Part shown: positions 8,277 to 30,218 of the stretch, one piece after another
Layout: each line of letters opens with the position of its first letter
Numbering within the stretch: the first letter of the stretch is position 1
Virus record (IMG/VR): IMGVR_UViG_3300017728_000004
Coordinates: 1-62,607 of that record
Reading direction: 5' to 3' (one strand)
Length of the DNA: 62,607 nt
Source of the DNA: a virus
The notes under the pieces: generated by a model
What the model saw: the letters and a program-made list of their open reading frames with translations, nothing else
Database searches by the model: none
Told to the model about the DNA's origin: nothing
Made by a program: the position numbers and the translations under genes

Positions 8277-8718
8277 GAATGCTTACCAATTGGTGAAGCA
8301 AATAACATGGGATGATGTCATCAAAAAGATGGAAAATGAGTTTGAACTTGAAACTTGTGTATCCTATGTTAACTCTACAAGCGCACCAACAATCATCTTA
8401 CATAATGAAAACCAACCAAAGAGTATATTTGATGCAGTAAAAGAAATTGAGAAAGATTGGGTAACAAATAGTTGCCATGTATATACCTCGTTTGCTAAAT
8501 CTGCTCTTACCTTTGGAAGACATAACGATAACGTAAATGTTTTAATTGTTGGTGCTATTGGAAAAGTCTCTTATAAATTTGATGATGGTTCTACATATCT
8601 CGTAGAACCTGGTGATAGTTTATACATTCCAGCAGGAGAATATCATGATCCAATAGTTCATTCTGCTAGAGCAACGCTGAGTATATCAACTCCATCACTT
8701 CCCCCACTTCAAACATAA
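8260..8718 (+). CDS. Cupin-fold protein
   Basis: A 152 aa protein starting at ATG 8260 just after a strong GAGGAG ribosome site that lies inside the previous gene. The C-terminal half shows a cupin barrel pattern: GRHNDNVNVLIVG, then GDSLYIPAGEYHD, with histidines placed as in small metal-binding cupins. Such proteins bind iron or other metals and may be dioxygenases or sensors. It sits directly before two 2OG-Fe(II) oxygenase genes and its stop overlaps the next start (TAATG), so it probably belongs to the same functional group. Confidence 0.6.
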   Translation: MVLFSKNAYQLVKQITWDDVIKKMENEFELETCVSYVNSTSAPTIILHNENQPKSIFDAVKEIEKDWVTNSCHVYTSFAKSALTFGRHNDNVNVLIVGAIGKVSYKFDDGSTYLVEPGDSLYIPAGEYHDPIVHSARATLSISTPSLPPLQT

Positions 8719-9281
8719 TGAGTAACGCAAGAGACTACCTGTTCAAAGTTCCTTTTAGGCAATACAGTATGCCTAATTGGGAAGCAAATAAGAAAAAAAT
8801 CTTAGAGACTTTACCAATCAATTCATACACCGATTTTTATGAAAATAAAAAGAACGGTCTTCCTTTTTACATTGATGTTGTAGGAGGTATAATTGATGAG
8901 GCAATGTCAGATTTCAAAAACACATATCCACCAGGTGTGATGATCACTTCTATGTGGTATGAGAGATCTAAGAAGGGAGATTACCATGGACCCCATAATC
9001 ATGGTGCAACAGGATTCTCTGCTATACTGTATGTTCAATACAATGGTGCAGATCATGAACCAACTAAGTTTCATTCACCATTTCTAGATGCTGCAACAGG
9101 TGAAAACATGAAGTATCAACCTGTTGTTAGAGAGGGAGATCTATTAGTATTCCCCTCTTATATTTTACATGAGGCACCTATTAATAATAGCGATACTGAT
9201 AGAACTATCGTGTCATTTAATATTATGGGTGAAGACGTGGCAAAGGCATGGAAAGCAGGATTCCTCAATGCTAAAAAATAG
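8718..9281 (+). CDS. 2OG-Fe(II) oxygenase-like protein (first of a tandem pair)
   Basis: A 187 aa protein with the putative 2OG-Fe(II) oxygenase pattern common in cyanophages. MWYERSKKG is followed by an iron-ligand histidine cluster near residues 90-95 (HGPHNHG), a strand FSAILYV, then GDLLVFPSYILHEA with the distal histidine, and RTIVSFNIM with the 2OG-binding arginine. The substrate is unknown. It shares the whole core layout with the next gene, indicating tandem duplication. It is translationally coupled to the cupin gene upstream. Confidence 0.75.
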   Translation: MSNARDYLFKVPFRQYSMPNWEANKKKILETLPINSYTDFYENKKNGLPFYIDVVGGIIDEAMSDFKNTYPPGVMITSMWYERSKKGDYHGPHNHGATGFSAILYVQYNGADHEPTKFHSPFLDAATGENMKYQPVVREGDLLVFPSYILHEAPINNSDTDRTIVSFNIMGEDVAKAWKAGFLNAKK

Positions 9282-15612: not shown

Positions 15613-15742
15613 TGATATTGTTGTTAACATGGACGGAGGTGTAGGTGGTTCTTGGTCAGTACAAAAAACAGAACCAGAAGATATCATCAATCAGATTCGT
15701 AAGTTAGAATCTGAAGCACCTGATTATGGTATTGGTAAATGA
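15602..15742 (+). CDS. Very small phage protein
   Basis: A 46 aa frame from ATG 15602, overlapping upstream by 11 bases and downstream by 4 (ATGA). MVPDDIVVNMDGG is followed by a Gly-rich turn and a C-terminal helix (PEDIINQIRKLES). A longer frame starting at 15533 lies within the previous gene and is less likely. No function suggested. Confidence 0.5.
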   Translation: MVPDDIVVNMDGGVGGSWSVQKTEPEDIINQIRKLESEAPDYGIGK

Positions 15743-16359
15743 TAAACCCTGATCTCAAAGGTCATAGTTTTAACGAACCTTTTCCTATATTATTGATTGA
15801 AAATGTTTTCTCGCCAGATCAGTTAGATGTTATTTGGAAAGAACTAGATTATTACTGTGCTAATGATATTCTCTTAGCACCTGAAGATACTGGTGGTGCC
15901 TATAAAAAAGGTAAATACGTCAAACAAAATTCTGGATTGTTCTTAACTGATGCCTGGAAAGGAGCATCGTATTCGGCAATCAACAAACACATTTCTCCAA
16001 TATTACAATCTTTTCCTCATGCTGATTGGGTACAAGATAACAAATACTTTGAAGAATTTCAATTCAATAAAGTTAGTGTATTAGTCTCTAATTATACAGA
16101 TGGTGATTACTATGACGCACATAGAGATCTATCGTTAGCAACATGTTGTCTTTGGTTATATAAAGAACCAAAACAATTTGCAGGTGGAGAGTTTAGTTTC
16201 ACTCAGTATGATTTAGAAATAGAGTGTAAAAATAACTCAATGGTTATATTTCCTGGATTATATAAACATCAGGTATCTCCAGTTTCTGGTGTAAAAAATC
16301 CCATGGACGGTAGATTTTGTATATCATACTTTTTGTCGTGGATCGGCAATGAGAAATGA
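15739..16359 (+). CDS. 2OG-Fe(II) oxygenase, prolyl-hydroxylase-like
   Basis: A 206 aa protein starting in an ATGA overlap. An N-terminal FPILLIENVFSPDQ is typical of this superfamily. YYDAHRDLS gives the HxD iron ligands, FAGGEFSF a core strand, NSMVIFPGLYKHQV the distal histidine, and GRFCISYFLSW the 2OG-binding arginine. It is the fifth oxygenase in 7.6 kb. It may hydroxylate a virion or host protein; nothing here identifies the substrate. A late promoter follows immediately. Confidence 0.8.
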   Translation: MINPDLKGHSFNEPFPILLIENVFSPDQLDVIWKELDYYCANDILLAPEDTGGAYKKGKYVKQNSGLFLTDAWKGASYSAINKHISPILQSFPHADWVQDNKYFEEFQFNKVSVLVSNYTDGDYYDAHRDLSLATCCLWLYKEPKQFAGGEFSFTQYDLEIECKNNSMVIFPGLYKHQVSPVSGVKNPMDGRFCISYFLSWIGNEK

Positions 16360-17720: not shown

Positions 17721-19163
17721 ATGGCAGATCAAGGACTTTTAGGACAAGCAAAACCAGCGGGAACAACTAATACAGTCCTGTATAGTGCTCCTGCAGATCA
17801 ATCCGCTTCCGCAGTATTAACTATTGCCAATGATGGCACTGGTGCAGCATATGATGTTGCGCTCAAAGATTATGATCAAAAACTTACTTTAGATGCATCC
17901 ACATATAAACTTCACGAAGGTGATATTATTAGTGGTTACAGATTTACAGTAGGTACTCCAATTAGTAGTGGGTCAGGGTTTCAACCAGGACAACAATTTA
18001 CTAGCACAGATGGTGAGAAGAAATTTAAATTTGAATCATTTTATATTCCAACCACTACATCTGTCTTTGTAAAAGATATTGCTATTAGACAGGTTACTCT
18101 CGAATCTATTACTGGCACTCCCGCAGTTGGTGATACTTTAACCAAGGGAGCAGGTAGCGACACTACAACTGCCACAGTATATGCTTATAAGAACAATATT
18201 GTGCATATTGGACCATCCACTATTAATGGTTCTGGTGCAGAATTTGCTGATGGTGATTCTGTTACCTCTGGTAGTGCAACTGGAACTGTTTCTACTGGTG
18301 GTGTTGGATCTGCTCAGAATGAATTTGTGTTCTCAACCACCACCTCTGGTGGAACATATGATTTAGCACTTGATGGTGCCACTACACTGTTCTCTGATAG
18401 AACATATCGTTTTGATACATCTGATTCTTCTATGAGTGGTAGAGACTTTAGTCTTTCTACTACTGTTAATGGTCAGTGGGGTCCAGATAATACTGCTGGT
18501 AACTCTGACGATGGCACAGAATTTACCACTGGTAGGACTACTAATGGCACAGCAGGTTCTGGTGGTGCATATGTTCAATTTGCATTTGGTGCAAACGATA
18601 ACACTCCTGGTACTTTGTATTTCTATGATGGTGGCACTGGCACTGACGCTAATGCAAACTATGGTGGAAATGATCGTTACATTCAAACTAGTGACGTAGT
18701 TCAATATAGTGAGATCTATGTCTATGACATTGAAGGCACTTGGACAAACAGCAGCGATGGTTTCCTGAATGCTGGTATCACTTATACCGTAACAGCACAA
18801 ACTGCAGGACCTTTTGGTATTGTTCGTTCTTTTACTGGAACTACACTGTACGTTTTGAAAGGTATTGGATCTGTCGATTTTGCAGGTACTAATACATTCC
18901 AAGATGTTCCTGCAAGTAATGAACAGTCCAGAACGCTAGCAACAGTTAGCAGTGTTACTGTTGCATCTGATGCACTTGAAGTTGAGAATTATCTTTCAAA
19001 AGATAAGACAAATGCTGCGAACAATGTCGATAGACTTACATCTCTCGTCATTGGACCTGGTGAAAGACTAGTTGTTGAAAGTGCAACTCAAAATAATATC
19101 TTCAGTCTAGTTGGATTTCAAGATGCTTCTACAGCATTGACAACTAGAGTCTTCGGTTCCTAA
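17721..19163 (+). CDS. Virion structural protein, beta-rich
   Basis: A 480 aa protein starting 7 bases after the previous stop. Composition is Gly, Thr, Ser and Asp rich, with low Lys and almost no Cys. The N-terminal half has an immunoglobulin-like strand pattern (SASAVLTIANDG, AAYDVALKDYD), and the C-terminal part includes ERLVVESATQN and FSLVGFQD. No enzyme motif. It is likely an appendage component expressed with the preceding gene. Confidence 0.6.
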   Translation: MADQGLLGQAKPAGTTNTVLYSAPADQSASAVLTIANDGTGAAYDVALKDYDQKLTLDASTYKLHEGDIISGYRFTVGTPISSGSGFQPGQQFTSTDGEKKFKFESFYIPTTTSVFVKDIAIRQVTLESITGTPAVGDTLTKGAGSDTTTATVYAYKNNIVHIGPSTINGSGAEFADGDSVTSGSATGTVSTGGVGSAQNEFVFSTTTSGGTYDLALDGATTLFSDRTYRFDTSDSSMSGRDFSLSTTVNGQWGPDNTAGNSDDGTEFTTGRTTNGTAGSGGAYVQFAFGANDNTPGTLYFYDGGTGTDANANYGGNDRYIQTSDVVQYSEIYVYDIEGTWTNSSDGFLNAGITYTVTAQTAGPFGIVRSFTGTTLYVLKGIGSVDFAGTNTFQDVPASNEQSRTLATVSSVTVASDALEVENYLSKDKTNAANNVDRLTSLVIGPGERLVVESATQNNIFSLVGFQDASTALTTRVFGS

Positions 19164-19169
19164 TAAATA
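19163..19169 (+). promoter_or_regulatory. T4-type late promoter
   Basis: ATAAATA in CTAATAAATAATC, 22 bases before the ATG of the 1320 aa structural gene and directly after the previous stop codon. Confidence 0.55.
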
Positions 19170-19190: not shown

Positions 19191-22100
19191 ATGTCCCTTA
19201 CTAGACTTAAGAATATTATTACGTCCAGAACTGGGCGTATTATATATGTTAACCCAGACGATTTTGATGCTTCTGATGCGATTGACAACAGAGGCAACTC
19301 TGCGTTGCGTCCGTTTAAGTCTATTCAAAGAGCATTTCTGGAAGTAGCAAGATTCTCCTATCGAGTTGGTTTATCAAATGACGAATTTGATGCCTTCTCG
19401 ATCATGTTATATCCAGCAGAATATGTTGTTGATAATAGACCTGGTGATGTTCTCTATACTAATGTTGCTCCTCTTGATGAGAACTCAAACCTTGACTTGA
19501 CTTCTCCTAATAATGTTCTGTATAAGTATAATTCAGTTGAAGGTGGTATCATCGTTCCTAGAGGTTGTTCTCTAGTTGGTACAGATCTTCGTCGTACAAA
19601 GATTATTCCTAAGTACGTTCCATATCCTACAACTCTTGCATCCAAAGGTATTAATACCGAATCTCAAGTACCTCCTCGTACTGCAATTTTCAAAGTTACT
19701 GGTGGAACATACTTCTGGCAGTTCTCTTTCTTTGATGGTGCTGAGGAAGGTGTATATTACAAACCCGATAGCACAGATACCTTAGCGCCTAAGTTCTCAC
19801 ACCATAGACTAACTTGTTTTGAGTTTGCTGATGGTGTTAATACTCTTTCAACTTTAATTAGTGGCGCAACAGTCCCTAACGCAGATTATTCTGCAGTTCC
19901 TAATATTCTTGAAAGAACAGATTTAGAAATTTATTATCAGAAAGTATCGAAAGCATTTGCTACAATTCCTGATACTTCTGGAGATCCTGCAACTGACCAA
20001 ATTCAGTTAAGAGTAGAAGAAAATAGAATTGTTGGTCCTATTTCTGATGAATATAGAGTCCTTCAGGTCACAAGAAATGGTCAGACAGCAACAGCAGTTA
20101 CTGTTGATGAGTTTGATAACCCTAGAGATCATGGATTCTCTGTTGGTGTTAACATCAACGTTAGTGGTGTTTCTGGATCAACTGGACCGCAATCAGAACT
20201 TGATGCTGGAATTTACAACGGATCTTTTACAGTCACATCAGCATCTGGTAACGTCTTTACTTACCAAATGCAAGGAGAACCATCAGGAAATGCTGTAGGT
20301 TCAAATATTACAGTTAAGACTGAGATTGATACTGTTGACTCTGCATCACCATATGCGTTTAACCTGTCACTGAGATCAGTGTGGGGTATGAATGGAATGC
20401 ATGCTAATGGTAGCAAAGCAACTGGTTTCAAATCAATGGTTGTTGCTCAATTCACTGGTTTGAGTCTTCAAAAAGATGATAGAGCATTCGTAAGATATAA
20501 TGCTTCTACTGGTAATTATGACAACGCAACTGCTGGTGATGGTGCTCACTTAGATGGTTTTGCTGAGTATCGTAAAGGTTGGGCACATGAGCACATTAAG
20601 TGTAGTAATGACTCCTTTGTACAGGCAGTTTCGGTGTTTGCTGTTGGATATGGCACACACTTTACTGCACTGAGTGGGGGTGATATGAGTATCACAAACT
20701 CAAACTCCAACTTCGGTAACACTGCTTTAAGAGCAGCAGGATTCAAAGCAAAATCCTTCTCTAAAGATAAAGCAGGTGCATTAACACATATTATTCCACC
20801 CAAATCATTAAACGTTATTTCTACCACTGCAACTGGTACGAATGCTGCATCCTCAATTACTCTTGCTAATGATGGTAACATCAATGGTGTTATTGAAGGC
20901 ATGACAGTTAGTGGTACTGGCATTGGTGCTGGTGCTATCGTGGGAACTGTCAATACAAACACTAGAGTTGTTACTTTAACAGCAGCAAATACTTCTACAG
21001 TTAGCGGTAATGTCATCTTCGGTGAAGAAACATCTGTCAATTGGGTGAACGTTGATATTCAAAGAACAAAAGTAATTAACGCAGCACTTGCTGGACAAGG
21101 AGGAACACCTGGCACAAGATTATATCTCTACGGATACACAGTTGAAGCAAGTCCGCCTACGACAAGAGTTCAAGGTTACACCGTTGGTGCACGTCAAGAT
21201 GGCACGGGCGGTAGTGCTATTCCCGATAAGATCAACTGCTTATTAGTAGCAAACGGTGCATCAACTGCAACTGTTCAAACTGCTAAAATTTCACCTTATG
21301 GTCCTTCTGTATCTGGTAAAGCAGCAGGTACGACTGGATCACCTATTCAATTTGATAGCACAACATATACAATCAATGGTGTTGCTGGTTCTATTGGTGG
21401 TTGGTATCTCGCTGTAGATTCCACTGACAATGCAATCTATACATCACTATCTACTAATACACAATACAATACAGTTAATTTCACTCCTACTACTTTCCTT
21501 AAGAGAATACCTGATCCTCGTGACTTGCAAGATAGAACATATCGTGTTCGTTATGTAATTGACAAGGATAAGACCAATCCTCTGCCTCGTGATCCTATTA
21601 GTGGTTATGTAATGCAACCGCTGAATAGTGACACAACATCGTATAGTTTGAATAAAGCATTCTACATTTACGATATTGAGATTGTTCAAAAATTTGAGAG
21701 AGGTGTTGCCGATGGAATCTACTATCTTACCCTGCTATGTGCATCTATTGCACCTACAACTTCTAACTTTAATGACAGGAAGTTCAGTCAAAACGTCAAC
21801 GAAGTCTATCCTACGTTTGACAGAGACAACCCTGTTGCTGACCCTGCTGCTTCGGTATCCGTCGCTGACAACGAAACTATCGGTCTTGTAAATTCTACTG
21901 ATGGTGCATCACCAACTCCTGCACTTGATCCTAAACGTTCTATTACTAAGGAAGCAGTTGAATTTATTCTTAGTGACACTGGTTGGACACAACCAGGAAC
22001 AACACCTAACTACGATAGTGTTAACGAGCGTCTTAGTAACGTTGAATTAACTGCTCGTCAGGGTGATGAAGAGACCAGAAAGATTAATATCAGACAGAAT

Positions 22101-23153
22101 ACTGATGGTACAGTAGCACCTATTGCTGTTGAATTTAGACGCCACTCAATTATGAGATCTGGTAACCATACTTTTGAGTATCTTGGTTTCGGTCCTGGTA
22201 ACTATTCAACTGCATTCCCTCAGACTCAAGTAGAGACGCTATCTACTGATCAGATTAAGTTCTCTCAGTCTATTAAAGAAGAAGGTGGTGTTGCATTCTA
22301 CTCTGGTCTTAACTCTAATGGTGACCTATTCATTGGTAACCAGATCATTAACCCAGTTACAGGTCAGATCACTAACGAAGATATTGCACAACTGAATGTT
22401 ATTGGTGAAGAGAATACAACAATTGAGACTTTCTCTGAGTTGGTTCTTACTGATAAACTCACTGTTATTGGTGGTGCATCTAACCAGTTAGAATCAATCT
22501 TTGCTGGTCCTGTTACATTCCAAGGACTGACTACATTCACAAACAATATTCAAGCAAGAAAGATTTCTTATTACAACCAAGATGGTACTGTAATCAAGCA
22601 AACTTTACTTGCACCTGAAGATGCAAACGGACTACCTAGTTTTGCTAATATCACAGGATATGATACTCCTGCTGATGGTGATCTTGTTTATAATATCAAC
22701 TGGTCACCTGGTAAATCTTTAGGTTGGATTTACTACAATGGAGCATGGAAAGAGTTTGGTCTTACTGACACTGGTGACATTAATATTAGTTCCTACAATA
22801 GTAGCACAATCATCGGTATTGGCACTGCTCCTAATAACAGTTTCAGAGTCAATGTAGATGGTGGTGTAAGAGTTGATGGTGACTTAGTTGTTACTGGAAA
22901 GGGTGGAGTTGGTGCTGATAAGTATATTACTAGAACCTACACTGGTGATGGTTCAACACTAACATTTGCTGTTACTACATATACTGGTGGAATTCAGCAT
23001 GCCGATGATTCAGTGTTGGTATTCTTGAATGGTGTTGCACAGATTGCAGGTACTAATTACACCGTAGATGGAAGCGGTGCGAATATTGTATTTGCTTCTG
23101 GTGATGCACCTTTATCAACTGATACAGTTCATATTTTAGAACTGCCTATCTAA
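19191..23153 (+). CDS. Large virion structural protein, putative tail-fibre backbone
   Basis: A 1320 aa protein. The N-terminal region (ITSRTGRIIYVNPDD, then SALRPFKSIQRAFLEVA and IIVPRGCSLVGTDLRRT) has the start pattern of a right-handed beta-helix (pectin-lyase-like) fold, in which one coil opens with a 'years of repeated events' type GRIIYV strand and a later coil with GCSLVGTD. The C-terminal end has a phage fibre module with VLVFLNGVAQ and TNYTVDGSG. No catalytic residues are identified. It has its own late promoter and sits just before the array of fibre-head genes, so it may form the shaft or docking platform for them. Confidence 0.6.
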   Translation: MSLTRLKNIITSRTGRIIYVNPDDFDASDAIDNRGNSALRPFKSIQRAFLEVARFSYRVGLSNDEFDAFSIMLYPAEYVVDNRPGDVLYTNVAPLDENSNLDLTSPNNVLYKYNSVEGGIIVPRGCSLVGTDLRRTKIIPKYVPYPTTLASKGINTESQVPPRTAIFKVTGGTYFWQFSFFDGAEEGVYYKPDSTDTLAPKFSHHRLTCFEFADGVNTLSTLISGATVPNADYSAVPNILERTDLEIYYQKVSKAFATIPDTSGDPATDQIQLRVEENRIVGPISDEYRVLQVTRNGQTATAVTVDEFDNPRDHGFSVGVNINVSGVSGSTGPQSELDAGIYNGSFTVTSASGNVFTYQMQGEPSGNAVGSNITVKTEIDTVDSASPYAFNLSLRSVWGMNGMHANGSKATGFKSMVVAQFTGLSLQKDDRAFVRYNASTGNYDNATAGDGAHLDGFAEYRKGWAHEHIKCSNDSFVQAVSVFAVGYGTHFTALSGGDMSITNSNSNFGNTALRAAGFKAKSFSKDKAGALTHIIPPKSLNVISTTATGTNAASSITLANDGNINGVIEGMTVSGTGIGAGAIVGTVNTNTRVVTLTAANTSTVSGNVIFGEETSVNWVNVDIQRTKVINAALAGQGGTPGTRLYLYGYTVEASPPTTRVQGYTVGARQDGTGGSAIPDKINCLLVANGASTATVQTAKISPYGPSVSGKAAGTTGSPIQFDSTTYTINGVAGSIGGWYLAVDSTDNAIYTSLSTNTQYNTVNFTPTTFLKRIPDPRDLQDRTYRVRYVIDKDKTNPLPRDPISGYVMQPLNSDTTSYSLNKAFYIYDIEIVQKFERGVADGIYYLTLLCASIAPTTSNFNDRKFSQNVNEVYPTFDRDNPVADPAASVSVADNETIGLVNSTDGASPTPALDPKRSITKEAVEFILSDTGWTQPGTTPNYDSVNERLSNVELTARQGDEETRKINIRQNTDGTVAPIAVEFRRHSIMRSGNHTFEYLGFGPGNYSTAFPQTQVETLSTDQIKFSQSIKEEGGVAFYSGLNSNGDLFIGNQIINPVTGQITNEDIAQLNVIGEENTTIETFSELVLTDKLTVIGGASNQLESIFAGPVTFQGLTTFTNNIQARKISYYNQDGTVIKQTLLAPEDANGLPSFANITGYDTPADGDLVYNINWSPGKSLGWIYYNGAWKEFGLTDTGDINISSYNSSTIIGIGTAPNNSFRVNVDGGVRVDGDLVVTGKGGVGADKYITRTYTGDGSTLTFAVTTYTGGIQHADDSVLVFLNGVAQIAGTNYTVDGSGANIVFASGDAPLSTDTVHILELPI

Positions 23154-23178: not shown

Positions 23179-23595
23179 ATGGCAATATCAAGAATTAGTG
23201 GCAATCAAATCGCCACCGCAACAGAAGCAATTCTTACCACTCTAAGTTTCCTTAATACTGGTAGTGTATTAAGGTTACCTGTTGGAACAACTGCACAACA
23301 ACCTACAGGTGTTTCACCAGGAACTATTAGATTTAATACTGATACTGATGCTGCTGAAATTTATAAAGCAGATAATGGTACTGGTAGTGCTGGATGGTCA
23401 GCAGTATCTGGTGGTGGTCCTGCATTAGGTGCAGATAGTGTTATTAGAACAAATCCAAATACTATCGATGAAAATATTACCGTTGGACCTACTGCTGGTG
23501 ATGAATTTGCTAATGGAATGAGTTCTGGTCCTATTACTATTAGTAACGGTTATACTGTTACTATTGAAAGTGGTGGTTCCTGGAGTGTGGTCTAA
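23179..23595 (+). CDS. Short fibre-anchor protein, member 1 of the fibre array
   Basis: A 138 aa protein carrying the anchor module found in the next six genes: RLPVGTTAQQP, PGTIRFNTDTDAAEIY and GWSAVSGGG. It lacks a large head; instead it ends with GPITISNGYTVTIESG and a short WSVV end. A GGAGG ribosome site (about 23160) precedes it. It could cap or dock the array members in the virion. Confidence 0.6.
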   Translation: MAISRISGNQIATATEAILTTLSFLNTGSVLRLPVGTTAQQPTGVSPGTIRFNTDTDAAEIYKADNGTGSAGWSAVSGGGPALGADSVIRTNPNTIDENITVGPTAGDEFANGMSSGPITISNGYTVTIESGGSWSVV

Positions 23596-23828
23596 TGTTA
23601 AATGTTGGATCTATACAAGGAAATTCTCCTAATTTTACAATAGATTTAGATGCTGGTAGTAGATTAAGATTAGCAAGTGATTTAAGAGTTAACCAACAGC
23701 AATATATTCCCCTACCTAGTGGAACTACTGCACAGAGACCTTCAGATTCTTATCCTGGAAGTATTAGATATAATACAACCATTAGTAAGTTAGAGATCTG
23801 GACAGGAACAACTTGGTTCAGTATCTAA
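23595..23828 (+). CDS. Minimal fibre-anchor protein, member 2 of the fibre array
   Basis: A 77 aa protein consisting of little more than the shared anchor module: PLPSGTTAQRP, PGSIRYNTT and KLEIWTGTTW. It starts in a TAATG overlap with member 1. It is either a headless decoy or adaptor, or the remnant of a fibre that lost its head domain. Confidence 0.6.
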   Translation: MLNVGSIQGNSPNFTIDLDAGSRLRLASDLRVNQQQYIPLPSGTTAQRPSDSYPGSIRYNTTISKLEIWTGTTWFSI

Positions 23829-23853
23829 ATATAGAATATAGGCACCTCACAAA

Positions 23854-25236
23854 ATGAGTCGAGTTACCACTGCAATACTAAAAGGAATCTCAGCAACTCT
23901 GGAACAAGTCACCATTCCTGGTGGTCATACTTTCAGGGTTAATGGTATATTGGATCTCACTGGAAATACAGGTGCATTTCAATTACCTACTGGAACAACA
24001 GCGCAACGTCCAGGTAGTCCTTCAACAGGATTTTTTAGATTTAATACTGATACAAATAAGATTGAACTTTATCGTAATGGTGCATGGGGATCGTATGAAG
24101 AAACGACCGATGTAGGCGGTGGTGGTGGCACTACTTCACAAATTGCTGATGAAATTCTAGTTTATGTTATGGATGAAAATGGTGATGCTAGAAGTCCGAC
24201 ATACAAACCATTAAATTCAGTAAAGGTATCAGATAATAGTGTAACTGCTACAGCATGGACAGATGTTCTGGCAAATAGTGACTGGAATGCTGTTGTATTC
24301 ACGAGTGATTCAAAACCATATATTCGTTGGAGATTTGATAGAAACAGTCAGAATATGGACACCATATTATCATCATTGATGAATAATTATTCATCATGGG
24401 GATCTGCCAACAATGCAACACAATCAGTAACACCAGTTGCAGGGTCTTCTGGTAAAGTTGGAGAAACAATGAACTTCCAACATAATAATGGTGGTGGTGA
24501 GAGTCATGATATTGTTACCTTAGGCAATAATGGTACTGTCTGGAGTTCGGGTATGTATTGGGGTAACATTGACTCCACAAGTAACTATGGTGGTATCTTA
24601 AACAAGGTTGAACCACACAGTGGTAGTGGCGGTGGTAATACTAACGAAAGAATTTTTGTATATTTAGATAATACACCTCTTGCCATTCAAGCAGGTGATT
24701 ATACAAACTATCTCACACCAACTGGTCCTTTAGGAAACGCTACTAATTTTAGTTGGTCTAACAATACAAGTTCTGGGGTGGGTAGTAGCAGTCCCAATAA
24801 TGTTGCTGATGCTGTTGATAGAAACACGACAAGTGATTGGCCCACATATGGCATTCAGCAGCAAGGTAACAATAACTGGATCTCGGTAGATTTGGGTGTT
24901 GGTAATGAAACTACGTTCGATTATACTTGGGTTATTGGTTATCCTAACGACAATCACTGGTCTGATCGGAACTTTGTACAAGGATCAAACGATAACAGTA
25001 ACTGGACCGATGTTGCAGAGTGGCGTTATCACAATGGATCTTCATCAAATGATGGTTATCTAATTCATAGTCAAGGTAGTCATCTTTATTCAAACACAGT
25101 TAATAATGTAGATAAGTGGCATCCTGTTGTCACTAGAGGTATTAAATATAGATATTGGAGATTATACGGTACTAACTTTAACCAATCCAATGGTTATATG
25201 CTGGTCATGAACTGGGGTCTAATGAAGAAAAACTAA
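23854..25236 (+). CDS. Fibre protein with discoidin (F5/8 type C)-like head, member 3
   Basis: A 460 aa protein. Residues 1-90 form the shared anchor (LPTGTTAQRP, GFFRFNTDTNKIELY, NGAWGSY). The last ~150 residues resemble an F5/8 type C/discoidin sugar-binding domain: NVADAVDRNTTSDW, then WISVDLGVG, YTWVIGYPNDNHW, FVQGSNDNSNW and RYWRLYGTN. Between them lies a LamG-like or unassigned beta region. Discoidin domains bind glycans or lipids, so this looks like a receptor-binding head. The family call rests on the WISVDLG and GSNDNSNW pattern. Confidence 0.65.
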   Translation: MSRVTTAILKGISATLEQVTIPGGHTFRVNGILDLTGNTGAFQLPTGTTAQRPGSPSTGFFRFNTDTNKIELYRNGAWGSYEETTDVGGGGGTTSQIADEILVYVMDENGDARSPTYKPLNSVKVSDNSVTATAWTDVLANSDWNAVVFTSDSKPYIRWRFDRNSQNMDTILSSLMNNYSSWGSANNATQSVTPVAGSSGKVGETMNFQHNNGGGESHDIVTLGNNGTVWSSGMYWGNIDSTSNYGGILNKVEPHSGSGGGNTNERIFVYLDNTPLAIQAGDYTNYLTPTGPLGNATNFSWSNNTSSGVGSSSPNNVADAVDRNTTSDWPTYGIQQQGNNNWISVDLGVGNETTFDYTWVIGYPNDNHWSDRNFVQGSNDNSNWTDVAEWRYHNGSSSNDGYLIHSQGSHLYSNTVNNVDKWHPVVTRGIKYRYWRLYGTNFNQSNGYMLVMNWGLMKKN

Positions 25237-26423
25237 TGAGCACACTAAACACTGATAACTTATACGGTCCAGACTGGAAAGATTTTACGATTGATATGCC
25301 TGCTGGTGCACATCTAAACGTAAGTGGTTCTTTAGAGTTTACATCTGGATCTCAATTTACTTTACCTAGAGGAACCACTGCTGAACGTCCATCATCACCT
25401 ACAGCAGGGATGATACGTTATAATATTACAACTTCTGGTGCTGAGTATTATAATGGTACTGAATGGATAGAGATGCCGTTGGGCGCATCGAATGATGGTA
25501 CTAGTCAAGAAACTGCTGCAAGTTCAGCAAGACAATTATTTGATGATGGTATTGTTACCAGTGGAAAATCTTTAAGATGGATTAATACCTCTGGTGGATT
25601 AAAACAAGTTTTTTGTGACTTTGATACTCAAGATGAGGATGGTAATAGTGGATGGATGTTAGTCGCATCATTCACTCAGGGAAATAAATGGGGTGGTGAC
25701 GGACAAAATATTATTACAACTGATGCCACTATTTTACCAAGTGGAGCACAAGATTATCAACCATCATCTAACTTTGCTGATATGAATATCACTGAGTTTA
25801 GACTGACGGCAAATAATGATATTGAAACTACGTTAGGTGCTCAGGCATCAGCAGATTGGTATTATCGATGGAATAATCCTATTACTTACAAAGAAATGTG
25901 GGCACCAACCGCAGGTAATACAAGATATTATTTGTCTAATGGTACTAATCCCAATGTTCAAAGATGTTCGATGAGAAAATTTGATAGTAGTTACAATCTC
26001 AAATATTCTTATAATAACCCTAATCACAGATATAATAATTTCAGTGACTATGGTTATACTAATAGTAGAGTTGATACTGCCGATTATAGTTATGGATTAG
26101 TTGGCGGTAGTCAAGCACCTGAAAGCGGGTTCTTTAACGTTTGGTATGCAATAAGTAATCCTGGTCAACAGTTTGAATGGTTCCGTATTGGTAGAACTGC
26201 AACTTACTCATCTAGATCTGGTGGTGATGTTGATGGAACATTTGCAATACCTCAACAGGGTGCCAACACTGATTCTACGGGACAAGATATTGATAGTAAT
26301 ATCAGTGTAAAAGTTGGTAACGATGATAATGTTGATTGGGGTGGTGCTGCTACTTCTGCGACACAAGATGCAGGAAATAATAGTGCAATTACCAACACAC
26401 CCTTATGGTGGTGGGTTAAGTGA
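25236..26423 (+). CDS. Fibre protein with fibrinogen/intelectin-like head, member 4
   Basis: A 395 aa protein starting in a TAATG overlap. Anchor at residues 25-90 (LPRGTTAERP, GMIRYNITTSGAEYY, GTEWIEMP). The head begins with LRWINTSGGLKQVFCDFDT and GWMLVASF, the strand-Cys-strand opening of fibrinogen-related (FReD/intelectin) lectin domains. Later parts are Tyr/Asn-rich (YKEMWAPT, YYLSNGTN). It is likely to bind surface sugar or lipopolysaccharide. Structure and family are inferred from this opening only. Confidence 0.65.
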   Translation: MSTLNTDNLYGPDWKDFTIDMPAGAHLNVSGSLEFTSGSQFTLPRGTTAERPSSPTAGMIRYNITTSGAEYYNGTEWIEMPLGASNDGTSQETAASSARQLFDDGIVTSGKSLRWINTSGGLKQVFCDFDTQDEDGNSGWMLVASFTQGNKWGGDGQNIITTDATILPSGAQDYQPSSNFADMNITEFRLTANNDIETTLGAQASADWYYRWNNPITYKEMWAPTAGNTRYYLSNGTNPNVQRCSMRKFDSSYNLKYSYNNPNHRYNNFSDYGYTNSRVDTADYSYGLVGGSQAPESGFFNVWYAISNPGQQFEWFRIGRTATYSSRSGGDVDGTFAIPQQGANTDSTGQDIDSNISVKVGNDDNVDWGGAATSATQDAGNNSAITNTPLWWWVK

Positions 26424-26429
26424 TAAATA
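26423..26429 (+). promoter_or_regulatory. T4-type late promoter
   Basis: ATAAATA in TGATAAATACT, right at the stop codon of member 4 and 28 bases before the next fibre gene, allowing separate expression of member 5. Confidence 0.55.
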
Positions 26430-26456
26430 CTAAAAGCATACAGATATTGAGTTGAC

Positions 26457-27566
26457 ATGCCAAGGTTAAACGTTACCAATGTAACCTCTTCGGGAACTTT
26501 ACAATCGGTTGATACTTTTAGTTCGACTGATGGATTTAGATTGCCGTCTTATTCTACAGCACAGAGACCTACGGGCATTCCTGATGGTACTATGATCTGG
26601 AATACTACAGCATCTGCTATTGAAATATATGGCAGTTCTCAATGGAATGAATTAGGTAGTGGTGGTGGTAGTGCTGCTATTGATACGTGGGCAGATGCTG
26701 CGGCAAGACCAACAACTAGTTTATCAGTTGGACAATTTGGATTTAATCAGGATACTAAACAATTTGAAGTTTATAATGTTAATGATGCTGGTACGGCAGA
26801 ATGGTTACTCTTAGGTAATGTTGTTGCTGCTGCACAATGGCATATCATAATGATGACACCTGGTGCTAAAGGTTCATCATCGAATACTCCAATAGGTAGT
26901 CCTGGTAGTAGCACTTGGAGAAGTATTACTTCCTCTAATACTGGTGCTAGTGGAAGAACTGCCTTTGGTGATGGTGAAGGATTGTATGAGGGTTATTTTA
27001 CTATTACTGGTGCAACTAAAGTCGCTCTTGTTAGTGGAAATGGTGATTTAACGGATCCATCAACACATTCTAAGTATCTTGTTTATGACTTAGTTGAAAC
27101 GGCAGGTGATACAACTCATAACATTTTAATTGCTATTGATGATTTCTGTAATGCATCGGGAAGTGGTATCACTGGCAGTGATGCTTCTGGATATACAACT
27201 CCTTCTGTTAATTCATTAACTGGTAATACTAATGGTTATAGCGGAACTTTAAGTGCCTCGGGTGGTACTTGGCAATCAAATAATGGTACTCAACCTGATA
27301 AATTTGTATATTGGGGTATCAATACCGAATCTGATGATGATACACAAGCACTCTGTGCATTCTCAGGGAACTTATCAAGCGGTAAAATGGATTCTTGGAG
27401 AAATAATAATCCAAATGAAACATTCTGGAGTTATTGGGGGCATGATTTTCACTCAGATGCTTCTAGTCAACGCCTTGGTAACAGTAGGCAAACTGAACCT
27501 GGCATTGCAACTGGTTCTTCACAAAGTAGTGAGACTGTTTATATGTTGGTTTATGTTCCTGGATAA
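26457..27566 (+). CDS. Fibre protein with unassigned head, member 5
   Basis: A 369 aa protein. It has the shared anchor (RLPSYSTAQRP, GTMIWNTTASAIEIY, SQWNELGSGGG) followed by a second shorter anchor-like unit (GQFGFNQDTKQFEVY). The head, about residues 120-369, is Ser/Thr/Gly-rich (TPGAKGSSSNTP, FCNASGSGITG, WSYWGHDFHSD) and ends ETVYMLVYVPG. I do not recognise the head family. Its place in the array suggests another receptor-binding variant. Confidence 0.6.
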   Translation: MPRLNVTNVTSSGTLQSVDTFSSTDGFRLPSYSTAQRPTGIPDGTMIWNTTASAIEIYGSSQWNELGSGGGSAAIDTWADAAARPTTSLSVGQFGFNQDTKQFEVYNVNDAGTAEWLLLGNVVAAAQWHIIMMTPGAKGSSSNTPIGSPGSSTWRSITSSNTGASGRTAFGDGEGLYEGYFTITGATKVALVSGNGDLTDPSTHSKYLVYDLVETAGDTTHNILIAIDDFCNASGSGITGSDASGYTTPSVNSLTGNTNGYSGTLSASGGTWQSNNGTQPDKFVYWGINTESDDDTQALCAFSGNLSSGKMDSWRNNNPNETFWSYWGHDFHSDASSQRLGNSRQTEPGIATGSSQSSETVYMLVYVPG

Positions 27567-27569
27567 ATA
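27563..27569 (+). promoter_or_regulatory. T4-type late promoter
   Basis: ATAAATA in GGATAAATAAAG, overlapping the stop of member 5 and 23 bases before member 6. Confidence 0.55.
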
Positions 27570-27591
27570 AAGTATAAGGTAATATCGAACT

Positions 27592-28695
27592 ATGTCACAA
27601 TTAACTGTTGGTTCAATAACTGCTGGTAGAGTCGTTGCATCTGGATATGTAGCAACAACAGGACAATTACAATTGCCTGCATATGATCAAGGTACTAGAC
27701 CTACTACATCAGCAGATGGTGTATTAATTTGGAATAAAACATCAAGTTCATTGAATTTGAAAGCAGGTGCTTCATGGATTGGTGTTGGTGGTTCTAGCAC
27801 TCCTACTTGGACTAATGCTACACAACCTTCTAGTAGTTCTGTTGGCGGTTATGGATATAATACAGAATTGGATAGATTTGAAGTATATCTTTCAACTGGT
27901 TGGAATGTTTTAGGTAGTGGCGGTGGTAGTGGAAATCCAAAAGGATTAAGTGCATCAACACCTGCTGTTGATGCTCAAGAAGTATTAAATACATCAGCAT
28001 CACCACCATCTGATGGTTTATATTATATTGACACTCCTAATGGTGGTGTTCAACAAATTTACTGTATCTTTGATAGGGGTGCAGGTTGGATGGTTGTTGG
28101 TAAGTTTGGTGGCGATGCATCAGATACTGTTGCAAACACTGTATCTACAACTAGAGCATTAACAGTTCAGAACAGCACTGGTACTGAATTTTCTGCTGAC
28201 TTTGGTGATTATTATCCGTCATTTGTTCGTCATATTGGAGTTGACAATATCAGTGATTGGTCAAATAATAGAAATCTAGATTTTTGGCATGGTGTGCCAA
28301 ATGATAGACAATGGAAAAGATATTGGACCAATGGTAGAAGTTCTGGAATGGATAGAGTTCGTCGACAAGGATTTACTACCCAAGGATCTTGGGATGGTAG
28401 AGGTAGATGGGCAAATCCTGATTATGGGTTTATGCAAATGTCTGACGCTGATACTAGTATTAGTGAAGGTGCATTTACTAGTTCAGGTAGTTTCTACTTT
28501 CATAATGCACAGGATGCTAAATTTAGTACAGATTCTCATAGGACTACATCTGGACAGGATGAAGAGGTTCAATGCCAGTACGGTTATGATGACTCTAGAA
28601 GATGCTTTATGGATAGATTTACGGATGGTGCTAGAGACGGTAATAATACAAACAGAAGAGATTACAGCAGTGCTGTATATGTCTTGCTTCACTAA
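27592..28695 (+). CDS. Fibre protein with fibrinogen-like head, member 6
   Basis: A 367 aa protein. Anchor: LQLPAYDQGTRP, GVLIWNKTSSSLNL, ASWIGVGG, then a second unit (GYGYNTELDRFEVY). The head opens DGLYYIDTPNGGVQQIYC and GWMVVGKFGGD, again the fibrinogen-related pattern seen in member 4 but otherwise diverged. The tail contains CQYGYDDSRRCF, a probable disulfide loop, and ends SSAVYVLLH. It is a second, independent copy of a lectin-like head in the same array. Confidence 0.65.
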   Translation: MSQLTVGSITAGRVVASGYVATTGQLQLPAYDQGTRPTTSADGVLIWNKTSSSLNLKAGASWIGVGGSSTPTWTNATQPSSSSVGGYGYNTELDRFEVYLSTGWNVLGSGGGSGNPKGLSASTPAVDAQEVLNTSASPPSDGLYYIDTPNGGVQQIYCIFDRGAGWMVVGKFGGDASDTVANTVSTTRALTVQNSTGTEFSADFGDYYPSFVRHIGVDNISDWSNNRNLDFWHGVPNDRQWKRYWTNGRSSGMDRVRRQGFTTQGSWDGRGRWANPDYGFMQMSDADTSISEGAFTSSGSFYFHNAQDAKFSTDSHRTTSGQDEEVQCQYGYDDSRRCFMDRFTDGARDGNNTNRRDYSSAVYVLLH

Positions 28696-28720
28696 ATATC
28701 ACTACAGAGTTATTTGAAAA

Positions 28721-29926
28721 ATGGGTCAATTTAACGTAGATCATCTACAAGCAACTAATATTACTAGTAGTGGTATTTTACAGGCACTCGGTGGATTTAA
28801 GTTCCCCTCTGTTACTACTTCAACTAGACCTAGTAGTCCTATCGCTGGTCAAACTGTTTATAATAGTGATGAAGTAGCACTAGAAGTTTATGATGGATCT
28901 GCATGGCAAACTATCGCTGGTGGTGGTGTGTTTCCTACATGGGCAAATGTTGCGGGAAGACCATCATCTGGTCTGGTGAATGCATATACAGGTATTAACA
29001 TTGCAGATTCAAAATTAGAAATTTATGACCTTGCTAATACTGAATGGATTCAAATTGGATTAGGTCAATCTAATCCTATTACTGCTAGTGGTGGTGATAA
29101 TGAATATACTCCTGGCGATGGTTTTAAGTATCACGTATTTACATCTGATGGAACATTAACAGTATCGGCAGGAAATGATGATGTTCAATATGTTGTAGTT
29201 GCTGGTGGCGGAGGCGGCGGTGGCGGTGACGTTGGTTGTGGTGGTGGTGCTGGTGGATATCGTTCTAATGTTCCTGGTTTCCCTTCGGGTGGCGGTAGTG
29301 CTGCTGAACCATCAATGACGCTCGCTCCTGGAACTTATCCTGTTGTTGTTGGTCCTGGTGGTCCTGGATCTAGTAGTTCTCCTTCTGATGCTAGTGACGG
29401 TGGCGAATCTAGTTTCAATGGCATCGTTTCCGCTGGTGGTGGTGGCGGTGCATCATGGGGTTCTGGAGAAGGTCGCTCTGGTGGATCTGGTGGTGGATCT
29501 GCTAGCACCCGTACTGGTGCAGCAGGAACAGCAAACCAAGGTTTCGCTGGTGCTAGTGGTCGTGGTGGTCCCCACTACCCTCAAGGCGGAGGCGGTGGCG
29601 CTGGTGGCGCTGGTGAACCCTCCAGAAATAATGATTTTGCTGGAAACGGTGGTTTTGGTCTTGTTAATCCCTTTGGCGCTGTTACTTCAATAGGAGAAAG
29701 AGTTAACAAAAGCTATTGGTTAGCAGGTGGCGGTGGTGGTGGAGTTGAATCCAACGCTGAGACTGGTCGCGGTGGTCTAGGTGGCGGCGGCATTGGTGGT
29801 CGTCAAAGTCCTAACACTGACCCGTCTCCAGGCAGTGCTAACACTGGTGGCGGTGGCGGTGGAGAGGATAGCGGCACGGGTGGTGCTGGTGGATCTGGTG
29901 TTGTGATGATCAGGTACGCAAACTAA
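28721..29926 (+). CDS. Fibre protein with glycine-rich adhesin head, member 7
   Basis: A 401 aa protein. Anchor: FKFPSVTTSTRP, GQTVYNSDEVALEVY, SAWQTIAGGG, then a second unit. The head (about 150-401) is built of polyglycine motifs alternating with short loops and ends GGSGVVMIRYAN, the usual end of glycine-rich phage adhesins. T2-type gp38 adhesins use similar polyglycine sandwiches to bind host outer-membrane proteins. DNA here is visibly richer in G and C because of the Gly codons. Final gene of the array, followed by a strong terminator. Confidence 0.7.
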   Translation: MGQFNVDHLQATNITSSGILQALGGFKFPSVTTSTRPSSPIAGQTVYNSDEVALEVYDGSAWQTIAGGGVFPTWANVAGRPSSGLVNAYTGINIADSKLEIYDLANTEWIQIGLGQSNPITASGGDNEYTPGDGFKYHVFTSDGTLTVSAGNDDVQYVVVAGGGGGGGGDVGCGGGAGGYRSNVPGFPSGGGSAAEPSMTLAPGTYPVVVGPGGPGSSSSPSDASDGGESSFNGIVSAGGGGGASWGSGEGRSGGSGGGSASTRTGAAGTANQGFAGASGRGGPHYPQGGGGGAGGAGEPSRNNDFAGNGGFGLVNPFGAVTSIGERVNKSYWLAGGGGGGVESNAETGRGGLGGGGIGGRQSPNTDPSPGSANTGGGGGGEDSGTGGAGGSGVVMIRYAN

Positions 29927-30005: not shown

Positions 30006-30218
30006 ATGCCTCAATTCACTCTCATTTGTACTGATGAGGACCAGACTGTAACAACTAAAGAATTTGAAGCATCTATTTTGCAGGAAGTTGTTGAAAAAAC
30101 TCAAGACTTTTTGAAGGGTGTTGGATACTGCTTTGAAGAATTGCACACTCAGATTTATCCTGTACCTGAAAGGGATGATACTGAGTACAGTTCTCTTTAT
30201 CGTAATGTTGATTCCTGA
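30006..30218 (+). CDS. Small phage protein
   Basis: A 70 aa protein, first in the small-gene cluster after the terminator/promoter unit. MPQFTLICTDEDQTV at the start and a helical middle (LQEVVEKTQDFLKG) suggest a small alpha/beta fold. No family recognised. Confidence 0.65.
   Translation: MPQFTLICTDEDQTVTTKEFEASILQEVVEKTQDFLKGVGYCFEELHTQIYPVPERDDTEYSSLYRNVDS

What the first reader, a model, noticed from the sequence alone, without database searches (positions are those of the whole stretch)
23179..29926. Array of seven tail-fibre genes sharing one anchor but carrying different heads
Seven consecutive genes each begin with the same module (T-T-A-Q-R-P, then G-x-I-R-x-N-T, then E-I/L-Y and W). 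Their C-termini differ: none, none, discoidin-like, fibrinogen-like, unassigned, fibrinogen-like and polyglycine. This looks like a cassette system in which a docking domain is kept and receptor-binding heads are exchanged. Lectin folds best known from animals are unexpected here. At least two array members have their own late promoters (26423, 27563), so mixtures of heads on one virion, or shifts in head ratio, are possible.
Basis: partly seen in the sequence, partly recalled or inferred. Interest (0 to 1): 0.85.

Follow-up and report, generated by a model that had tools for sequence, protein, structure and literature searches.

The report
Slot-coded cyanophage tail-fibre tip array
A virus of marine cyanobacteria carries seven neighbouring genes for small tail-fibre tips; across related viruses the front ends of these proteins keep a fixed order while the lectin-like tips behind them are swapped or lost, and in a published co-evolution experiment with a related virus four of the seven base substitutions hit one such tip.

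Summary
Seven consecutive late genes (23179-29926) of a T4-like cyanophage, close to Synechococcus phage S-MbCM100/ACG-2014a, share a homologous N-terminus (leave-one-out E<=2e-10) and mostly have unrelated C-termini. The model needs correcting. The conspicuous shared motif (TTAQRP...GxIRxNT...E-Y...W) is probably not a docking domain: it resembles a trimeric beta-sheet module at the C-terminus of tailspike CBA120 TSP3, and three genes carry it twice. What distinguishes the genes is the ~40 residues before it. In 24 distinct related arrays these N-terminal classes keep one order (234 ordered pairs, 0 inverted; shuffles average 73) and never repeat within an array, whereas heads move: one head family sits on three consecutive slots of S-TIM4, slot 5 carries three unrelated heads among near relatives, slot 2 has or lacks a head. 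Best reading: slot-specific, trimeric fibre tips with exchangeable receptor-binding heads. Selection evidence: chemostat isolate S-RIM8 A.HR5 differs from A.HR1 by seven substitutions; four, all nonsynonymous, lie within 75 nt of one array head. Fibrinogen/intelectin-like (genes 4, 6) and discoidin-like (gene 3) heads are supported but weakly; similar lectin-like genes are already known in marine phages. Late promoters precede every gapped array gene, not two. Virion incorporation is unproven.

The parts
19191..23153 (+). Upstream tail-fibre gene (1320 aa), probable scaffold next to the array
   Evidence: phrog_529 tail fiber, 2138 bits; Syn9 orthologue gp34 is annotated 'structural protein, putative fiber'
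23179..23595 (+). Gene 1 (138 aa): N-terminal class 1 + core module + ~60-aa fibre C-terminus-like cap; always first in the array
   Evidence: extended to 314 aa by an added C-terminal region in S-RIM8
23595..23828 (+). Gene 2 (77 aa): N-terminal class 8 + core module, no head; slot 2 carries a ~200-aa head in S-RIM2 and S-TIM4
23854..25236 (+). Gene 3 (460 aa): N-terminal class 2 + core module + head H with discoidin-like part (F5_F8_type_C_2 match at residues 320-395)
   Evidence: orthologue-sized ACG-2014a protein named F5/8 type C
25236..26423 (+). Gene 4 (395 aa): N-terminal class 7 + core module + head G, fibrinogen/intelectin-like family
26457..27566 (+). Gene 5 (369 aa): N-terminal class 9 + two core modules + head M, fold unassigned
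   Evidence: AF2 model poor
27592..28695 (+). Gene 6 (367 aa): N-terminal class 10 + two core modules + head K, fibrinogen/intelectin-like
28721..29926 (+). Gene 7 (401 aa): N-terminal class 11 + two core modules + Gly-rich head (Gly_rich_2, residues 142-399)
   Evidence: (E 3.2e-22)
19162..19169 (+). Late-promoter-like NATAAATA before the fibre gene
   Evidence: motif as described for S-PM2 (PMC2984593)
23150..23156 (+). Late-promoter-like CTAAATA before gene 1, sharing the upstream stop codon
23825..23831 (+). Late-promoter-like CTAAATA before gene 3, sharing the stop codon of gene 2
26422..26429 (+). Late-promoter-like NATAAATA before gene 5
27562..27569 (+). Late-promoter-like NATAAATA before gene 6, sharing the stop codon of gene 5
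28692..28698 (+). Late-promoter-like CTAAATA before gene 7, sharing the stop codon of gene 6
23264..23364 (+). Core module of gene 1 at DNA level; 101-nt direct repeat with 23972-24072 (gene 3, 70%) and 25351-25451 (gene 4, 60%)
   Evidence: family D2
26643..26673 (+). 31-nt Gly-linker repeat after the first core module of gene 5, 90% identical to 27901-27931 after the second core module of gene 6: candidate recombination seam
   Evidence: family D10
27901..27931 (+). Partner copy of the Gly-linker repeat at the module-head boundary of gene 6
   Evidence: family D10

Best explanation
The array encodes a set of small, probably homotrimeric accessory fibre tips made late in infection. Each has three parts: (a) an N-terminal segment of about 40 residues specific to its slot, inferred to be the docking address on the fibre/baseplate or on the neighbouring tip; (b) one or two copies of a ~38-residue beta-sheet module, inferred to trimerise the chain and hold it in register; (c) a C-terminal head that binds host surface glycans (inferred), of discoidin-like, fibrinogen/intelectin-like, Gly-rich or unassigned type, or absent. 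Recombination at the module-head boundary replaces, copies or removes heads while the addresses stay in order. Shown: homology, order, head mobility, late-promoter pattern, selection on one head in S-RIM8. Inferred: presence on the virion, docking role, trimer, glycan binding.
For: N-terminal homology. 24 distinct arrays: 30 N-terminal classes, 234 ordered pairs, 0 inverted, shuffles mean 73, minimum 48; no class repeats in an array, while a head class repeats in 6 of 24; stable at five thresholds for the 85-aa anchor or the first 38 aa, at most 5 inverted pairs of about 240. Segment before the module: 45% identity within a class with different heads, 21% between classes; module itself 57% and 40%. 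S-TIM4-type trio: N-termini 51-66% identical by slot across genomes for slots 2-3 (41-62% for slot 1) but 20-39% between slots of one genome, heads 63-83% regardless of slot; L006 slots 1 and 2 share heads at 80% (N-termini 30%) while the L005/L006 orthologues with 87% identical N-termini share heads at only 74%. Slot 5 carries three unrelated heads among close relatives; the gene-5 head recurs on an unrelated N-terminus in L039/L041/L064. Module resembles CBA120 TSP3 C-terminus by profile (E 1.1) and Foldseek (prob 0.96, rmsd 1.2 over 39 columns) and Gp49 (9d83, E 0.0065); TSP3 D4 is a three-stranded sheet trimer (PMC6517402); Foldseek also gives the collagen XVIII trimerisation domain, prob 0.84. 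Late promoters: 80 of 80 non-redundant gapped array genes against 106 of 276 other gapped ORFs and 3.4% of random positions. S-RIM8 A.HR1 vs A.HR5: 7 substitutions in the whole genome, 4 nonsynonymous within codons 182-206 of array gene SXDG_00096; P about 8e-6 after multiplying by 219 genes.
Against: In the deposited Syn9 annotation the three fibre genes upstream are 'structural protein' but the array genes gp35-39 are not, so the tips may be of low copy or not in the virion. Conserved order may in part be plain synteny. Structure models are poor (pLDDT 41 and 44); similarity of the module to trimerisation domains is weak statistically. Class contrast of N-termini is partly built in by the clustering. 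SXDG_00096 matches the window-only anchor profile only at E 8e-4. No receptor is known.
Confidence: 0.6

Rival explanations
1. One reading: one common docking domain (the TTAQRP module) for all seven, so heads compete for the same sites and virions carry mixtures.
For: All seven share the module; nearly every gapped gene has its own late promoter, so ratios could vary.
Against: Slot-specific N-termini in fixed order, never duplicated in an array; module tandem in genes 5-7 and similar to a C-terminal domain in CBA120 TSP3, so it need not dock.
Confidence: 0.2
2. Plain synteny: the array is a tandem paralogue cluster whose N-termini diverged after ancient duplications and stay in order by vertical descent; the N-termini carry no positional information and only the heads are under diversifying selection.
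For: Order is conserved as for many phage genes; head turnover with selection is ordinary for host-recognition regions (PMC3909814).
Against: With module DNA up to 70% identical between slots and heads converted between slots, unequal crossing-over should also shuffle or duplicate N-termini, yet none of 24 arrays shows it.
Confidence: 0.3
3. The products are not virion adhesins but secreted or surface glycan-binding effectors, or tail-fibre assembly factors, made late.
For: Not annotated as structural in Syn9; virion proteomes summarised in PMC3037559 could not be checked gene by gene.
Against: Directly follow three fibre genes; gene 1 ends like fibre C-termini; host-range-phenotype-related isolates differ in an array head.
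Confidence: 0.12
4. A programmed diversity system (diversity-generating retroelement or invertible segment) drives the variation.
For: Clustered nonsynonymous changes in one head.
Against: No reverse transcriptase or resolvase/invertase match in the 62.6-kb record; inverted repeats in the array are short, imperfect and far apart. The record is a genome fragment.
Confidence: 0.03

Closest known systems
Arrays of S-MbCM100 / ACG-2014a (Acionnavirus, Kyanoviridae)
   Same: Same seven genes, same order, genes 3, 4, 6 and 7 orthologous over their length
   Different: Slot-5 head is unrelated; gene-6 N-terminus only 38% identical though its head is 62-68%
Branched multi-tailspike complex of Kuttervirus CBA120 (TSP1-4) and of Alcyoneusvirus RaK2
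   Same: Several receptor-binding proteins from neighbouring genes, non-equivalent N-terminal parts that set assembly order, variable C-terminal specificity parts (PMC8825819, PMC10253068)
   Different: There: T4 gp10-like XD domains and depolymerase beta-helices. Here: short (~40 aa) slot-specific segments, lectin-like non-enzymatic heads; resemblance found only to the TSP3 C-terminal module
Modular receptor-binding proteins of Klebsiella phages (Przondovirus KP32 and others)
   Same: N-terminal structural module kept, C-terminal specificity module exchanged (abstracts of PMC6872550 and PMC8262889)
   Different: Here the moving heads are lectin-like and also travel between slots of one genome
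Metaviromic islands of marine phages
   Same: Host-recognition genes, including lectin-like, C1q-like and fibrinogen-like ones, are the hypervariable part (PMC3909814)
   Different: That work does not describe an ordered array with slot-specific N-termini in the passages read
T4-GC 346-354 cluster of cyanomyoviruses
   Same: Same locus, recorded as gene clusters in Syn19, P-SSM4, Syn33 and S-SM1
   Different: Full-length ortholog clustering hides the split between N-terminal class and head class

Membership tests
Branched multi-RBP tail complexes (Kuttervirus/Alcyoneusvirus type) | Several receptor-binding proteins encoded side by side | tested here: met
   Seven tandem genes after three fibre genes; function as RBPs inferred
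Branched multi-RBP tail complexes (Kuttervirus/Alcyoneusvirus type) | T4 gp10-like XD domains in the N-terminal region of the organiser protein | tested here: inconclusive
   No XD hit by profile search; Foldseek gives CBA120 TSP4-N only at prob 0.10-0.41 from poor models
Branched multi-RBP tail complexes (Kuttervirus/Alcyoneusvirus type) | Depolymerase beta-helix bodies | tested here: not met
   No Pfam or PDB match of that kind in genes 1-7
Branched multi-RBP tail complexes (Kuttervirus/Alcyoneusvirus type) | Physical branched complex on the virion | not testable with these tools
   Needs cryo-EM or proteomics
Fibrinogen-related / intelectin (X-type) lectin, genes 4 and 6 | Significant match to the family | tested here: inconclusive
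   No Pfam hit; PDB profile hit XEEL intelectin E 0.023; the nine best Foldseek PDB hits fibrinogen-like at E 0.0099-0.075; BFVD match to P-SSM4 'Fibrinogen C-terminal domain' protein E 7e-9
Fibrinogen-related / intelectin (X-type) lectin, genes 4 and 6 | Ca-dependent glycan-binding site | not tested
   Model too poor to place residues
F5/8 type C (discoidin), gene 3 | Pfam score above the curated cut-off | tested here: not met
   Window protein 16.4 bits against 27.8; best of six orthologues E 5.8e-4, five of six match
Gly_rich_2 (PF21722), gene 7 | Pfam score above the curated cut-off | tested here: met
   80.1 bits against 24.3
T4-type late genes of cyanomyoviruses | NATAAATA/CTAAATA upstream | tested here: met
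   motif from PMC2984593
Diversity-generating retroelement or invertible fibre switch | Reverse transcriptase or serine recombinase nearby | tested here: not met
   the record is a fragment

The most novel reading that the evidence does not exclude
The N-terminal segments are an ordered set of mutually exclusive docking addresses: each phage builds a composite fibre tip with up to seven distinct positions, and heads are written into any position by recombination, so a phage samples receptor combinations rather than one receptor at a time.
Probability: 0.35. Interest if true: 0.75.

Novelty: new variant of a known kind. Interest (0 to 1): 0.6.

Why it matters
The receptors and receptor-binding proteins of T4-like cyanophages are largely unknown; these phages lack recognisable T4 long-fibre genes (PMC2984593). 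The array gives a specific candidate, a rule for reading it (N-terminal class = slot, C-terminal class = head), and links it to a coevolution experiment in which the selected gene had no assigned role. It makes host range in these phages directly testable gene by gene.

Tried and rejected
AlphaFold2 of genes 5 and 6 with 7 and 13 sequences gave pLDDT 41 and 44; only the core module and the first part of the gene-6 head reached about 60-77, so no binding site was placed. PDB profile searches for genes 3, 4, 5 and the fibre found nothing; gene 7 found only an implausible kinase-subunit match. A naive search for 'same anchor, unrelated head' at >=65% identity found none, because anchors of different-head pairs are more diverged; the slot-class analysis replaced it. 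Marston et al. 2012 and Weigele et al. 2007 are not in the paper library; supplementary proteomics tables could not be opened. Mutated array genes of S-TIM4 could not be identified from the main text. Diversity-generating retroelement and invertase ideas rejected. The apparent lack of long ORFs after 48 kb is probably the giant gp7 gene running off the window (6.4 kaa in S-RIM8), not checked further.
Full report
What is there. The window (a 62,607-base IMG/VR fragment) is part of a T4-like cyanophage. Upstream of the finding lie baseplate and fibre genes, ending with a 1320-aa tail fibre (phrog_529); downstream come small genes beginning with phrog_935 at 30006. Between them are seven ORFs. 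The nearest named phages are S-MbCM100 and ACG-2014a, with the same seven genes in the same order at about 84% DNA identity over half of the 10.7-kb query.

The N-terminal homology is real. Leave-one-out profiles recover each of the seven at E 2e-10 or better and far above shuffled controls, and no other ORF of the window matches. Independent PHROG profiles built from other phages cross-match the same N-terminal stretch in the seven genes.

The shared motif is probably a structural fibre module, not the docking site. A profile of 24 diverse copies finds, in the PDB, Gp49 (9d83, E 0.0065) and, weakly (E 1.1), the C-terminus of tailspike TSP3 of phage CBA120. Independently, Foldseek places the modelled module on TSP3 (39 columns, rmsd 1.2, prob 0.96) and on the collagen XVIII trimerisation domain (prob 0.84). 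In TSP3 that region is the linker plus D4, a three-stranded sheet whose three copies form a beta-prism (PMC6517402). The module is tandem in genes 5-7. Each of these matches is weak alone; together they point to an oligomerisation module. This step is inference.

The slot-specific part is the ~40 residues before it. I called ORFs in 80 viral-contig loci holding the upstream fibre and in eight named phage regions, classed N-termini and heads separately, and reduced the arrays to 24 distinct ones. N-terminal classes keep one order: 234 comparable pairs, none inverted, against a mean of 73 and a minimum of 48 in 2000 shuffles; no class occurs twice in an array. The result holds at five clustering thresholds and with the first 38 residues alone (at most 5 of about 240 pairs inverted). 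Identity of the segment before the module is at chance level between classes (21%) while the module stays at 40%. Shared descent contributes to the order; the point is the contrast with heads.

Heads move. In S-TIM4 and three related contigs one head family (63-83% identical) sits on consecutive slots behind N-termini that are only 20-39% alike within a genome but match the same slot in other genomes. In contig L006 the heads of slots 1 and 2 are 80% identical although their N-termini are 30% identical, whereas the slot orthologues in L005 and L006 have N-termini 87% identical and heads only 74% identical: heads have been copied between slots. Slot 5 has three unrelated heads among the window, S-MbCM100 and L007/L008. 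The gene-5 head occurs on a different N-terminus in L039, L041 and L064. Slot 2 is headless here and in Syn33 but carries a ~200-aa head in S-RIM2, and slot 1 is extended from 138 to 314 aa in S-RIM8. A 31-nt, 90% identical Gly-linker repeat at module boundaries of genes 5 and 6 is a plausible seam.

Expression. NTAAATA, the late-promoter motif reported for cyanomyoviruses (PMC2984593), precedes every array gene that follows a gap, in the window (5 of 5) and in the non-redundant set (80 of 80), usually 28 nt before the ATG; other gapped ORFs of at least 80 aa have it in 106 of 276 cases. The window as a whole has fewer TAAATA than expected (31 against 61.5). So most units carry their own promoter, in the window often sharing the previous stop codon; genes 2 and 4 are read with genes 1 and 3.

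Selection. S-RIM8 A.HR1, A.HR3 and A.HR5 are isolates from a chemostat (record annotation). Over 40 kb A.HR3 equals A.HR1. A.HR5 differs from A.HR1 genome-wide by seven substitutions, two single-base indels and a 2884-base deletion. Four substitutions (G182R, E189Q, Q191H, S206R) lie in the head of the second array gene; the other three are in gp23, SXDG_00017 and SXDG_00176. The chance of four or more of seven in this gene is 3.6e-8, or 8e-6 after multiplying by 219 genes. A natural isolate shows the same trend: eight nonsynonymous and one synonymous codon change in this gene against one and four in the fibre (Fisher P 0.023). A later paper says the earlier RIM8 study found a poorly conserved gene of unknown function under strong selection (PMC9910659); that it is this gene is my inference, as the original could not be read.

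Heads. Gene 3: discoidin-like, below cut-off. Genes 4 and 6: homologous (hhalign 98.5%), fibrinogen/intelectin-like by three weak independent lines. Gene 5: unassigned. Gene 7: Gly-rich. Such domains are already named in relatives and in marine phage islands, so the folds are not a surprise.

What is missing. No direct evidence that these proteins are on the virion. In the deposited Syn9 record the three fibres are marked structural and the array genes are not. No structure of good quality, no receptor, no test of docking. Verdict: a real, general and testable array; a new variant of modular multi-receptor-binding systems.

Noticed in passing
L090/L091 and L114-L121 (S-RIM8 A.HR5 vs A.HR1): A.HR5 also lacks 2884 bases near record position 130408 of A.HR1, a stretch with genes annotated gp165, gp166, OMP1 protein, heat shock protein and gp169, and carries A459D in the major capsid protein gp23.
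   Followed up: partly
L086:5479-6060 (S-RIM2) and L111:18497-19725 (S-SM1): 2OG-Fe(II) oxygenase genes sit inside or right after the array, in S-RIM2 between slots 2 and 3; the window has two oxygenase-family genes upstream (8718-9281, 15739-16359).
   Followed up: no
L039:10269-12088: An alternative N-terminal module ('DVYIDAANDRVGIN..PT..LDI') replaces the usual one in arrays of L039-L041 and L064; a related stretch precedes the core module in class 4 genes.
   Followed up: no
window:1-62607: TAAATA is half as frequent as in shuffles (31 against 61.5), as if stray late promoters were selected against.
   Followed up: no
window:48203-62607: Few ORFs are listed because the following gene, probably a giant gp7 as in S-RIM8 (record 48783-67970), seems to run off the end.
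   Followed up: no
IMGVR_UViG_3300017786_000028 (L095, L099, L101, L106): A 41.6-kb contig encodes heads of genes 3-6 that are 100% identical to the window's, suggesting the same phage population was assembled again.
   Followed up: no
window:23179-23595: Gene 1 matches positions 1133-1275 of the 1452-position profile phrog_745, so in some phages it may be part of a much larger protein; the partner could point to its docking site.
   Followed up: no
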